A stretch of 64,000 nt of DNA from Methylomonas fluvii. Lineage in GTDB: Bacteria > Pseudomonadota > Gammaproteobacteria > Methylococcales > Methylomonadaceae. The position numbers were made by a program, and so were the translations under genes. The stretch spans positions 1,426,001-1,490,000 of the forward strand of contig NZ_JACXST010000001.1 of the NCBI RefSeq assembly GCF_014850975.1, given 5' to 3'. The stretch's first letter is position 1. Each line of letters opens with the position of its first letter. A model generated the notes under the pieces. That model made no database searches. It was given only the letters and a program-made list of their open reading frames with translations, and was not told the origin of the DNA. Positions 60,287 to 64,000 of the stretch are shown piece after piece.

Positions 60287-60667
60287 GGGGGTGACATGGC
60301 TTCGACGTGGGTAGCAAAACCTCAGGTGCATGCCGAGCACAGTACAGCTCGTAAAACCTACTGAAAACAAGTATTCGCAAACGACGAAAACTACTCAGTG
60401 GCCTTAGCAGCTTAAAACCTGCACCACTTCTCTGACCAGATGTACTTATGCGTCTGGAGTCTCCTTCGGGAGGCGCTCAGGGATCATATTACATAAGATC
60501 GCGCCAGGGCTTAGTTCGGAGCCTGAATCGCTAAATCCAATCGAAATCGCTGTTGATCCTCTTGGCCCGACGGGTAGTCAACAGTTAAATTAAAAGCGCG
60601 GGATAAGCATGTAGAGCTTGTGGCGGAGTGCTTGCGGACGGGGGTTCAATTCCCCCCACCTCCACCA
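60287..60667 (+). ncRNA. ssrA: tmRNA
   Basis: A 381-nt transfer-messenger RNA that rescues stalled ribosomes. The 5' GGGGGTG pairs with CACCTCC before the 3' ACCA. The tag frame GCAAACGACGAAAACTAC...GCAGCTTAA encodes ANDENYSVALAA, the proteobacterial form. The TTCAATT T-loop is at 60644. It needs SmpB (not in the window). The 3' end is a common integration site for islands. Confidence 0.97.
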
Positions 60668-60676
60668 AGTAAACTA

Positions 60677-60706
60677 TTGAAAAATAAAGAAATGTCTATT
60701 TATTTT
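60677..60706 (+). terminator. AT-rich hairpin after ssrA
   Basis: AAAAATAAA and TTTATTTTT form a hairpin ending in a T-run, the most likely end of the tmRNA transcript. Confidence 0.5.
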
Positions 60707-60725
60707 TCGAAACATTGGCGGTAAA

Positions 60726-60755
60726 TTGGCGTTTACTACAACCAGTAAACGCCAA
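60726..60755. repeat. Perfect 12-bp inverted repeat
   Basis: TTGGCGTTTACT and AGTAAACGCCAA enclose ACAACC. No T-run follows. Could be an integrase arm site or a regulator site between ssrA and the small secreted protein gene. Confidence 0.5.
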
Positions 60756-60926
60756 TAATCGGCATATTCCGAATTATCAGTACCTTTCCCAATCGTTGAT
60801 CTGTTGAATGTTTGACGATCCATTTAGGCACAACCTAAATTCATAACGAAAAATCTGTGCAAAAACAGCGCGGGCGAGGAGGAGTGATTTTTGGTCTTGT
60901 CCGATTTGATTTTTTAAGGATTATTA

Positions 60927-61391
60927 ATGTCTGTCTTCAGTAGATCTATTTTGCTTATCTCGACTGTAATTGCCGCTTCGAATGCTTACGCGGTGGATGA
61001 ATCAATGAAGCTTATCGGCGTTACAGACTTCAAATTCACCCTTAGAGACAAACCGGCTGTATCAATTCATTTTGGCGAGAGCGATACAAACCATTGCAGC
61101 GCAACAGTTCAGCGTTCAAAAGTGAAACAGGGATACACTGTTTCATCATCTAAACGCAGCAACGCCGACTTTTCTATTGAATGTAATTGGGACGGAAATT
61201 ATTTTGTCGAGTCATCAAACCACCTGACCTTCACCGACTTCTCGATTGTTACGTTAGACAAAAAGAGCAAAACCGCATCCATCATGGTTTCTTTCAAACT
61301 ATTGGGATTACCGTCTAATACATACCTGGAACGACACGACGTTATCGTGCCGATATCGGGAAAACACTTCCAAAGTCTTACCATGAAATAA
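60927..61391 (+). CDS. Small secreted protein, unknown function
   Basis: A 154-residue exported protein with signal peptide (ending NAYA). The body is beta-rich with two cysteines (NHCSATV, IECNWDG), suggesting one disulfide. AAGGATTA precedes the ATG. It converges on the broken methyltransferase. It lies in the variable region after ssrA. Confidence 0.6.
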   Translation: MSVFSRSILLISTVIAASNAYAVDESMKLIGVTDFKFTLRDKPAVSIHFGESDTNHCSATVQRSKVKQGYTVSSSKRSNADFSIECNWDGNYFVESSNHLTFTDFSIVTLDKKSKTASIMVSFKLLGLPSNTYLERHDVIVPISGKHFQSLTMK

Positions 61392-61393
61392 TA

Positions 61394-62219
61394 TCAAGCC
61401 GACAACCGGTTAACAGCACCGGCATACTCAGCTTGACCCATTTCGCAACCTACAAAGCGGCGTCCCAGTTCCACGCACGCCAACACCGTAGATCCTGAAC
61501 CGACAAAAGTATCCAGCACCACATCGCCTGGCCTAGAGCTAGCCGAAACAATATGCCGCATCAACTCCAAAGGCTTCTCGCACGGATGCTTTCCTGGGTA
61601 CCACTGCACCGGCTTGAAGTCCCACACGTTTGTAAACGGCACGTCCTTAGTTACTGCGAAATGCCGCTGCTGTAGTTTGACGGCTTTGTATTCGGAAAAC
61701 AGTTCATCGTAGGCCTTAAGCCTATTGCCGAACATCGCATTCATCGTGTCGTAATGTGCGCGGCTGGGCATGCTCCATTGCGATCGATCAAACCAATGGC
61801 CAGACATCTGACACCCGCACGCCTGCTCGATTTGTTTACGTGATACGCCAGACGTCTTCCTAGTCTGATCAAGGTGTAACCTGATAGGCTCGAAAGCAAA
61901 CGGCAAACGGCAAGCGCTTGCGGCTTTCGGCGAAGATGATGTGCTCTGTTTGCGGGAAATAACGACGCAATGATTCCTTACGGCAGCCATTGTGCCGGCC
62001 GCTGGGCTTACGCCAGACGATATGGTTTAGAATCCGGAAATGCCTAGCGACAGCTAATTCAACTTGCGTCCCCAAATGGGGTCCAGCGAATAAATACATA
62101 GAACCGGCTGGCTTCAACACCCTGTGGTACTCGACCAGCACGGTATCCAGCCAGGCAAAAAACTCGGTTGGATTGCGCCATTGGTTATCCCAGGCGTTGT
62201 CTTTTCCTGGCAAACCCAA
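61394..62219 (-). pseudogene. DNA adenine/cytosine-N4 methyltransferase, frameshifted and truncated
   Basis: Two overlapping frames encode parts of one beta-type amino-methyltransferase. The upstream frame holds WDNQWRNPTEFFAWLDTVL and SMYLFAGPHLGTQVE; the downstream frame holds KPLELMRHIV, VVLDTFVGSGSTVLACVELGR. A tandem GCCGTTT duplication near 61899-61913 shifts the frame; removing one copy restores continuous reading. The DPPY motif region before 62219 is missing, so the gene is also truncated. Confidence 0.85.
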
Positions 62220-62367
62220 CAGCCGTTTACAGCAATATCGTTTGACGGACCAAGGCCGAAATTTACTTTGACTTCATTGAGCTAATAAATACCCTCATTA
62301 AATGGACAAACACCCTAACCAAGTCTAATTGGCTGAATAAGATAGTCATGTGACCGTCAGCCATCCG

Positions 62368-62437
62368 CCACCAATTCAAAAGACCAACTCGTTAACAGTT
62401 GGTCTTTTTTTTGCCTGCCATTTAGGGTTTATGCGGG
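62368..62437 (+). other. CCACCAA-terminator module A (att-like)
   Basis: CCACCAA (62368-62374), then AAGACCAACT/AGTTGGTCTT hairpin with eight Ts, then TTGCCTG...GGGTTTATGCG. It matches module B at 63789 over ~70 bases and carries the same heptamer as the ssrA 3' end. Confidence 0.6.
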
Positions 62438-62543
62438 TTCCAGATTTATGCAACAAAGCCGTATAGAACATGTAATTACCACTTTCGGGTGTAAATGGGT
62501 ATATTTATGGATAATGGGTGTTATTGGGCGTAAGATTGGGCGC

Positions 62544-63593
62544 ATGATAAATTCTGCCACCATCCAGATTACCCCGGAGATTCTTGGCTTAATCGCCAAC
62601 ATTGATGAGTTCAAAGGCGCCTGGCGTGCATTGGGCACACTGGCGCCTGATCGCCTTTCCGCATTGCGACGAGTCGCAACGATTGAAAGCATCGGGTCAT
62701 CCACTCGCATTGAAGGCAGCAAATTATCCGACCGCGATGTTGAGCGCTTGTTGTCGAGTTTGCAGATCAAGACCTTTACCACACGAGACGAACAGGAAGT
62801 GGCGGGTTATGCCGAAGTCATGGATTTGATAATTGCTTCCTGGGCGGACATCGCGCTGACCGAGAACCACATCAAGCAATTGCACCGCGACCTGCTGGTC
62901 TACAGCGAAAAGGATGCCTGGCATCGAGGTAACTACAAATCGTCCTCCAACAGCGTGGTTGCTTTTGACGAAAACGGATTGCAACTTGGCGTGGTATTCG
63001 AAACCGCTACGCCCTTTGATACCCCAAGATTAATGACCGAATTGGTTACGTGGATTCAGGAAGAACGCAGTTCAGCGCGACTGCATCCGTTGTTATTGAT
63101 TGGTTTGTGGGTAGTTATTTTCCTTGAAATCCATCCTTTTCAAGATGGTAATGGCCGATTGAGTAGAGTGTTGACCACATTGCTGCTTTTACAAGCAGGT
63201 TATAGCTACGTGCCTTATAGCTCGCTGGAAAGCGTCATCGAAATGAACAAGGAAGCCTATTATCTGGCGTTAAGACAGACCCAGGGAACGATTCGGACCG
63301 AAGCGCCGAACTGGCAACCTTGGCTTTTGTTTTTCTTGCGTTCGCTTGCCGAGCAAATGCGTCGCCTCAACAAAAAAGTAGAGCGTGAAAAATTGGTTCT
63401 GGCGCCGTTGCCTGAGCTATCGCTGCAGATTGTCGAATTTACTCGAGAACACGGTCGCATGACGATGGCAGATGCCATCAGACTAACTGGAAGTAGTCGA
63501 AATACCCTGAAACAACATTTCAGGGCGCTGGTTGAGCAGAGGCACCTTAATCAACATGGTAGTGGTCGCGGTGTTTGGTATGAGCTTCGCTGA
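62544..63593 (+). CDS. Fic-family AMP-transferase with self-inhibitory motif
   Basis: A 349-residue Fic enzyme. Active motif HPFQDGNGRLSR is intact. An N-terminal inhibitory helix motif SSTRIEG (S/TxxxEG) marks class II Fic proteins that carry their own inhibitor. The C-terminal ~70 residues form a winged helix (MTMADAIRLTGSSRNTLKQHFRAL). The frame extends back to 62448; ATG 62544 is chosen to keep the conserved core start. Confidence 0.88.
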   Translation: MINSATIQITPEILGLIANIDEFKGAWRALGTLAPDRLSALRRVATIESIGSSTRIEGSKLSDRDVERLLSSLQIKTFTTRDEQEVAGYAEVMDLIIASWADIALTENHIKQLHRDLLVYSEKDAWHRGNYKSSSNSVVAFDENGLQLGVVFETATPFDTPRLMTELVTWIQEERSSARLHPLLLIGLWVVIFLEIHPFQDGNGRLSRVLTTLLLLQAGYSYVPYSSLESVIEMNKEAYYLALRQTQGTIRTEAPNWQPWLLFFLRSLAEQMRRLNKKVEREKLVLAPLPELSLQIVEFTREHGRMTMADAIRLTGSSRNTLKQHFRALVEQRHLNQHGSGRGVWYELR

Positions 63594-63788
63594 TCCAAAA
63601 TGAATCTCGGTTCAATTGCGAAATCGGGAATTGAACCACTTGCCAAACCAGCCGGCGAAACCTGCGTAAAAACAGCAGATTTCTGGCATTTCAAAAGGCC
63701 ATCAAAACCACTTCCTTAACAAACCCGCAAATCCCGGCATCCTTTTGCAATCGCAGAGTGGAAGCAGTTTGTCGCGGGTGGGGCACCA
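63594..63788. other. Intergenic region with GGTTCAATT inverted repeat
   Basis: GGTTCAATT (63609-63617) pairs with AATTGAACC. The sequence recalls a tRNA/tmRNA T-loop but no full cloverleaf forms. No gene seen. Confidence 0.4.
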
Positions 63789-63862
63789 CCACCAAATTAT
63801 CAAAGCCCAACTGGTCTCAGTTGGGCTTTTTTATTGCCTGTTACTGTGGGTTCGTGCGCGGC
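63789..63862 (+). other. CCACCAA-terminator module B (att-like)
   Basis: CCACCAA (63789-63795), AAAGCCCAACT/AGTTGGGCTTTTTT hairpin, then TTGCCTG...GGGTTCGTGCG. Homologous to module A. The final 138 bases hold no complete gene; GGAGG at the window edge suggests one starts just outside. Confidence 0.6.
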
Positions 63863-64000
63863 GTGTTGGTCCTGTGGGTTTCGGCATCGGGTACAAATTA
63901 ATTCGCTCTTGGGTTTGAGTCAACTTGGTGCGTATTTTTGTGAACTCCAACGGGAAGTTCGTCCTTTTGGTGCGTCGCGCCGCTATTTGGCTTAGGAGGC

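What the first reader, a model, noticed from the sequence alone, without database searches (positions are those of the whole stretch)
60662..63862. Serial integration scars downstream of ssrA
CCACCAA ends the tmRNA and recurs at 62368 and 63789. After the latter two, ~70 bases are homologous: a hairpin with AACT...AGTT arms, a T-run, TTGCCTG and GGGTTnnTGCG. This looks like an original ssrA-downstream terminator copied or displaced by two successive insertions (1.7 kb and 1.4 kb). No integrase is visible inside.
Basis: partly seen in the sequence, partly recalled or inferred. Interest (0 to 1): 0.65.

Follow-up and report, generated by a model that had tools for sequence, protein, structure and literature searches.

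The report
Stacked insertion scars behind tmRNA gene
Behind the tmRNA gene of this bacterium lie the leftovers of at least two mobile elements that inserted one after another at the gene's last bases, pushing its old terminator 3 kb away; this is a well-known kind of insertion hotspot, here in a small and decayed form.

Summary
CCACCAA stands at 60662, 62368 and 63789; the modules behind the last two are homologous far beyond chance (0 of 2000 shuffles), and the module pattern occurs nowhere else in the genome. Serial integration at ssrA is supported. Homology to the chromosomal MCP block of G192 and G210 starts exactly at 63789, though there it lies 10.3 and 16.8 kb from ssrA behind other islands. 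The ~190 bp left of 63789 recur in three other genomes, joined at the core to three kinds of flank. So 63789 is an attR and modC the displaced ssrA terminator. ModB is better read as a terminator that came with the older, Fic-carrying island. The stretch 60669-62204 is the left end of a prophage; its 36.6-kb relative in G081 has its integrase beside the far attR, which explains why none remains here. It is fused to a stub of a second Fic gene, whose attR-like join at 62368 has a counterpart in G027. The kind is known. Particular here: probably three insertions within 3.1 kb, no strong ssrA terminator left, and a cos-like site 204 bp from ssrA.

The parts
60287..60667 (+). ssrA (tmRNA), tag ANDENYSVALAA; its 3' end CCACCA(A) is the attachment site (attL now)
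60662..60905 (+). left arm of prophage remnant (island A), including the 7-bp core at 60662
   Evidence: 92% to G013, 71% to G081, shorter matches in G009 and G002, all directly behind ssrA
60728..60753 (+). 10-bp hairpin in the left arm, kept by compensatory changes
   Evidence: 4 of 10 pairs with changes on both sides in 5 sequences, 100% of cells paired, slid controls 40-46%; the structure was taken from these sequences themselves
60857..60894 (+). cos-like motif GTGCAAAAACAGCGCGGGCGAGGAGGAGTGATTTTTGG, about 204 bp from the ssrA end
   Evidence: recurs in the family; resembles P2/P4 cos
60927..61391 (+). 154-aa phage protein with a signal-like N-terminus (my reading); PHROG 25845, unknown function
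   Evidence: 81% in G013 at the same place
61394..62204 (-). phage DNA methyltransferase, broken: two frames (61394-61990 and 61869-62219), N-terminus cut at about 62204
   Evidence: PF01555; pieces 82-97% to the open 307/308-aa genes of G013 and G081
62204..62271 (+). C-terminal stub of a second Fic-family gene; deletion junction at about 62204
   Evidence: homology switches from G013/G081 to G024 at island position 1543-1547; the stub matches the end of a Fic-like ORF in G140
62354..62374 (+). last bases of island A and core CCACCAA (62368-62374), attR-like join
   Evidence: CCGTCAnCCATCCGCCACC plus core and a terminator also in G027, about 46 kb behind its ssrA on the same strand
62374..62439 (+). 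modB: terminator (stem 62378-62408, T-run, GCCTG), read as left arm of island B
   Evidence: role inferred
62448..63593 (+). intact Fic-family protein, 381 aa (Fic domain; weak C-terminal helix-turn-helix matches)
   Evidence: PF02661, PADLOC SoFic, PDB 8uqu; 97% in G013
63601..63788 (+). right arm of island B
   Evidence: 79-80% in G009 and G176, partly in G013, each ending at the core
63789..63795 (+). core CCACCAA, attR of island B
   Evidence: chromosomal homology to G192/G210 starts at 63789; arm homology ends here
63789..63862 (+). modC: displaced ssrA terminator and flank (stem 63803-63828)
   Evidence: directly behind ssrA in G176 (93%, 71 bp) and G016 (86%, 69 bp); at +10.3 kb in G192, +16.8 kb in G210

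Best explanation
The stretch is a stack of decayed site-specific integrations at the 3' end of ssrA. A tyrosine integrase exchanged strands inside the last ~7 bases of the gene (CCACCAA), so each element entered between ssrA and whatever stood behind it, and the newest lies closest to ssrA. First the Fic element (island B) displaced the terminator modC and supplied its own (modB). A second Fic-carrying element and a prophage then inserted in front of it. A deletion ending near 62204 removed nearly all of the prophage, including the integrase, which in this phage type sits at the far end beside attR. Shown: both sides of the 63789 junction, the prophage identity of the left part, the join at 62204, absence of an integrase. 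Inferred: the order of events, the integrase class for island B, that modB is island B's left arm, and that the second Fic stub was a separate element.
For: Chromosomal side: G000 63789-64087 aligns to G192 (83%) and G210 (81%) from exactly 63789, to G006 from 63792, to G095 from 63803; there the block lies about 10 to 17 kb behind ssrA. Island side: the right arm is shared with G009, G176 and G013 up to the core, behind which there are three kinds of flank (modC type in G000 and G013, others in G009 and G176). All four arms read A where ssrA genes read T, eight bases before the end of CCACCAA, so strand exchange fell to the right of that base. The join at 62368 has a counterpart behind ssrA of G027, of another family. 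ModC-like sequence follows ssrA directly in G176 and G016. Prophage: bases 1-1547 of island A are 91% to G013 and the methyltransferase part 81% to G081, where a 36.6-kb prophage with terminase, portal and tape measure (PHROGs) and a 334-aa integrase (PF00589, PF24624) ends at a 27-nt, 96% copy of the ssrA 3' end. G210 has a second case: an open 381-aa integrase next to ssrA and an exact 32-nt ssrA copy 6.7 kb on.
Against: No genome read shows modB directly behind ssrA, nor ssrA-modC-MCP without any insert, so the strict empty site was not seen; G176 and G016 have the terminator but other genes behind it. MCP was found behind ssrA in only 7 and the helicase in 9 of 31 genomes, in the stretches read, so the flank is not conserved across the genus. 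G013 carries Fic, right arm and modC-type terminator far from ssrA. Of island A's right end only the last ~18 bp have a counterpart; it does not match the G081 right end. The shared core at 62368 is only 7 bp.
Confidence: 0.86

Rival explanations
1. Integrase-less cassettes: the Fic unit and its like (cargo genes between a terminator-bearing left arm and a common ~190-bp right arm) are still mobile and are inserted and excised in trans by integrases of resident prophages.
For: The same right arm sits beside different cargo: Fic in G000 and G013, a GNAT-like gene in G009, a PrlF/YhaV-like pair in G176 (the last two names are my reading of the sequences). In 7 of 7 genomes searched with a full list no PF00589 match over the cut-off lies in the ~20 kb behind ssrA.
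Against: Decay explains the same. G009 has a 32-residue integrase fragment, below the cut-off, 0.8 kb past its attR; G014 has a 124-aa fragment just over the cut-off; G081 and G210, not among the seven, have open integrases. No excision was observed.
Confidence: 0.08
2. ModB and modC are two copies made by local duplication of the ssrA-terminator segment, without mobile elements.
For: They are homologous.
Against: Each is more like the terminator of some other genome than like the other module: modB scores 64 to G003 and 63 to the far G013 copy against 54 to modC; modC scores 107 to G176. The DNA between them has an island arm found in other genomes, and the junction at 63789 is sharp.
Confidence: 0.02
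3. Homologous recombination with ssrA-flank DNA of relatives, not an integrase, brought in the pieces.
For: The chimeric join at about 62204, where the left side matches G013 and the right side G024.
Against: Joins at the core recur with different partners in four genomes and at 62368 in a fifth, G027, the mark of site-specific exchange.
Confidence: 0.04

Closest known systems
ssrA-specific genomic islands of Dehalococcoides (PMC3146451)
   Same: Multiple tandem islands behind ssrA, bounded by ssrA 3' repeats; 15 of 31 lack the integration module and are discussed there as possibly cis-mobilizable (abstract, passages and section 10 read).
   Different: There a 20-bp repeat, a serine recombinase and insertion in the T-loop; here a 7-bp core at the very 3' end, prophage ancestry with a tyrosine integrase in a relative, islands of 1.4-1.7 kb.
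tDNA/tmRNA islands of the Islander database (PMC4383910)
   Same: Element between the gene and its displaced 3' fragment; the tmRNA gene is more enriched as a target than any tRNA type (passages).
   Different: By its stated filters it would be rejected: no integrase, islands shorter than 2 kb; I did not run Islander.
tmRNA hotspot of E. coli (hotspot 9, PMC10121019)
   Same: Prophages, P4-like satellites and mobilizable islands at one tmRNA locus (passages).
   Different: Other elements; here at least two integrase types (G081, G210) and a fragment in G014 at the genus' ssrA, and integrase-free remains in G000.
P2/P4-type cos site
   Same: GGGCGAGG core and AAAACCGC upstream.
   Different: The rest of the 19-nt end differs; no cleavage shown.

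Membership tests
ssrA (tmRNA) integrative island | Element lies between ssrA and a displaced ssrA 3' segment | tested here: met
   cores at 60662, 62368, 63789; junction at 63789 mapped from both sides; the displaced segment is only 7 exact bases
ssrA (tmRNA) integrative island | Island absent or replaced in relatives | tested here: met
   G192, G210, G006, G095 have other DNA between ssrA and the same chromosomal block; a strict empty site was not found
ssrA (tmRNA) integrative island | Cognate integrase in the island | tested here: not met
   none near ssrA in G000; present in the related prophage of G081
Islander-type tDNA island | Length at least 2 kb and integrase present | tested here: not met
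   1.7 and 1.4 kb, no integrase; criteria from PMC4383910 passages
Prophage of the G081 type | Same left arm and methyltransferase behind ssrA | tested here: met
   the 154-aa gene between them is shared with G013, not with G081
Prophage of the G081 type | Structural genes and integrase | tested here: not met
   absent in G000; only about 1.5 kb remain
P2/P4-type cos site | Sequence likeness and place next to packaging genes | tested here: inconclusive
   in P2-like phage ACA1 the motif lies between replication and holin/portal genes, but the hit has E 0.9; in G081 it lies at attL, about 20 kb from terminase and portal
P2/P4-type cos site | Cut by terminase | not testable with these tools
   needs an experiment

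The most novel reading that the evidence does not exclude
The prophage remnant keeps a functional cos-like packaging site 204 bp behind ssrA, in front of a Fic gene and the chromosome; an incoming phage of the same kind could start packaging there and export ssrA-flanking DNA and the integrase-free Fic unit, which a helper integrase then reinserts at ssrA of the next cell: a minimal satellite made only of att, cos and cargo.
Probability: 0.06. Interest if true: 0.65.

Novelty: new member of a known kind. Interest (0 to 1): 0.33.

Why it matters
It shows how the downstream region of the tmRNA gene is rewritten by insertions. In 27 of 31 genomes of the genus ssrA is followed by a hairpin and T-run, of several different sequences by eye; the 4 without one by my criteria, G000 included, all carry this prophage's left arm. 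Island finders that demand an integrase and 2 kb, such as Islander by its description, would pass over such scars, so small integrase-free genes at ssrA may be undercounted; that is an inference.

Tried and rejected
Chance repetition of CCACCAA was considered and rejected for the modules, though the 7-mer alone is common. An integrase just beyond 64000: none. Matching island A's right end to the G081 right end failed. In the search with 62200-62450 (251 genomes) weak hits over the modB hairpin in G244 and G085 look like hairpin-only matches to other terminators, and one weak hit in G008 covers 62262-62303 and was not explained; the hit in G027 is a real counterpart of the join. A first, AT-rich hairpin in left arm A was not counted, because its register shifts between sequences. 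The ~36-nt motif was run against Rfam on 9 loci: only sub-threshold tmRNA_permuted matches touch it in some; against phages only weak hits, E 0.9 and above; in viral contigs 1 contig. I built no covariance model and predicted no structure.

G176 was first taken as a clean empty site; its following genes are not MCP, and further core-plus-terminator modules lie 74.5 and 75.8 kb on, so it counts only for the terminator. Rows left out of the terminator count: of 37 genomes of the genus searched 35 matched ssrA; 31 had a usable flank; G001, G023, G253 and G255 were not used, G010 and G017 had no match. The flanks read run from 0.1 kb (G003) to about 20 kb for most, further for G013, G081 and G176.

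Papers: PMC3146451 abstract, passages and section 10; PMC10121019 and PMC4383910 passages only; the rest search listings only. The search for cos sites in Peduoviridae gave 0 papers. I make no claim that anything is absent from print.

Full report
What was seen. The window is G000:C1:1426001-1490000, from a 5.59-Mb genome in four contigs. The tmRNA gene lies at 60287-60667. The 7-mer is not rare (18 in the window, 9.1 expected), but the ~60 bases after the second and third copy are homologous: score 54, shuffles at most 34 in 2000. A pattern for core plus hairpin arms finds only these two places in the genome; its reversed control finds one.

The outer junction. In G192 and G210 the sequence from 63789 onward (83% and 81% over 299 bp) leads into the same MCP gene, but at +10.3 and +16.8 kb from ssrA; the alignment begins at base 63789, the first base of the core. 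G006 and G095 show the same block at about +10 kb, starting at 63792 and 63803; in G011 and G180 the homology starts only at 63900, so the terminator itself is gone there. In the stretches read, MCP stands behind ssrA in 7 of 31 genomes (G000, G006, G011, G095, G180, G192, G210) and the helicase in 9 of 31; the others have other genes there, so this flank is not universal in the genus. Left of the core, 63601-63788 recurs in G009 and G176 (79-80%) and in part in G013; the alignment shows one conserved arm up to the core (one change in the core of G013) and three kinds of flank behind it: modC type in G000 and G013, and two others. All four arms have A where the ssrA genes have T, eight bases before the end of CCACCAA, so exchange took place to the right of that base. 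This is what a tyrosine integrase with a 7-bp overlap would leave; the overlap length is recalled knowledge, not measured.

The inner junction. The last ~18 bp before the core at 62368, the core and a terminator of the same make recur in G027, of another family, about 46 kb behind its ssrA and on the same strand. This supports 62368 as an attR, with a different arm from that of island B.

The terminators. In G176 ssrA is followed directly by modC-type sequence (93% over 71 bp, one base shorter at the start), in G016 by a relative (86% over 69 bp). G003, G024 and others have more distant versions. ModB scores 64 to the sequence behind ssrA in G003, 63 to the far copy in G013 and 54 to modC. By order of insertion, a sequence between two islands is the left arm of the older one; I therefore read modB as a terminator that came with the Fic island. 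In a survey, 27 of 31 genomes have a stem with at least six G or C and a T-run within 170 nt of the ssrA end by my criteria; those of G009 and G210 are weak. The four without are G000, G002, G013 and G081, all with left arm A. G000's ssrA thus seems cut off from a strong terminator. Left arm A does hold a 10-bp hairpin kept by compensatory changes (4 of 10 pairs, 5 sequences), but without a T-run.

Island A. From 60662 to about 62208 the DNA is 91% to the ssrA flank of G013, and the methyltransferase part 81% to that of G081. G081 has a 36.6-kb prophage there: left arm, motif, methyltransferase of 308 aa, tape measure, terminase, portal and, beside attR, a 334-aa integrase (in Pfam the portal is below its cut-off and the tape measure has no match). 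Its attR repeats 27 nt of the ssrA 3' end at 96%. G218, of another genus, shows ssrA, the same motif, an antirepressor-like gene, C4 RNA, a methyltransferase-like and a tail-like gene in that order (gene names here are my reading, C4 is an Rfam match). In G000 the methyltransferase is cut at its N-terminus and split into two frames, and at about 62204 the sequence changes to the last codons of another gene, matched about 500 bp behind ssrA in G024 and, more weakly, behind ssrA in G107. In G140 the same codons end a 356-aa open frame that matches Fic. So a deletion fused a prophage left end to a stub of a second Fic gene. The integrase, at the far end in this phage, went with it. In seven genomes searched with a full list (G000, G002, G006, G009, G011, G013, G018) no PF00589 match over the cut-off lies in the ~20 kb behind ssrA; G009 has a below-cut-off fragment. 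G081 and G210, not in that list, have open integrases, and G014 a fragment.

Island B. The 381-aa protein has a Fic domain and weakly matched C-terminal helix-turn-helix models; best PADLOC model SoFic, best solved structure 8uqu. Fic proteins as a family transfer AMP or related groups to targets (recalled); whether this one is defensive is unknown. In G013 a 97% copy lies far from ssrA (about 792 kb if the contig is circular, 4.6 Mb otherwise) with part of the right arm and a modC-type terminator, next to a serine-recombinase-like gene on one side and a restriction-subunit-like gene on the other (these two names are my reading). The homology begins at 62450, behind modB. A rearrangement that carried the attR away is the simplest reading, but it was not traced.

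The motif. A ~36-nt sequence at 60857-60894 is covered by hits in 22 of 250 other genomes of the order, all of the same family; 18 of these were read. It lies about 200-240 nt behind a tmRNA or tRNA gene in G000, G009, G013, G081, G218 and G093, and close to Int_N-type integrases in four loci, L059, L060, L069 and L072, in differing orientations. One metagenomic viral contig carries it near its end, behind a long tape-measure-like frame. P2 and P4 records show AAAACCGC and GGGCGAGG around the annotated P2 cohesive end. In phage ACA1 a similar stretch lies between replication genes and holin/portal genes, about where P2 has cos. Against it: in G081 the motif is some 20 kb from terminase and portal, and the database hit is weak (E 0.9). 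A cos site is plausible and no more.

Verdict. The finding is a real and well-resolved case of a known phenomenon, tandem integration at ssrA followed by decay. Interest is moderate to low.

Noticed in passing
60857-60894: Cos-like ~36-nt motif found near prophage left ends and integrases in this bacterial family.
   Followed up: partly
G013:C1:5136202-5137394 (L115, L136): Near-identical Fic unit with part of the right arm and an ssrA-type terminator far from ssrA, beside a serine-recombinase-like gene.
   Followed up: partly
G006, G011, G018, G095, G180, G192, G210 behind ssrA (L035, L037, L046, L098, L099, L096, L097): ssrA islands carrying what look like type I restriction genes, nucleotidyltransferase/HEPN-like pairs or Fic genes: a defence-type hotspot (names from my reading of the sequences).
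   Followed up: no
L002:7063-12225 (beyond the window): 1720-aa protein with both DEAD/Helicase_C and UvrD helicase domains, found behind ssrA in 9 of 31 genomes read.
   Followed up: no
G176:C6, 74.5 and 75.8 kb behind ssrA: Two more core-plus-terminator modules in a long array whose far end was not reached.
   Followed up: partly
G027:C1 about 1812440 (L085): Core plus terminator about 46 kb behind ssrA in another family, with a helicase-like and a Fic-like gene on its two sides (my reading): perhaps the far end of a large ssrA island.
   Followed up: partly
60927-61391: 154-aa phage protein of unknown function (PHROG 25845) kept open in the remnant while the methyltransferase beside it is broken.
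   Followed up: no
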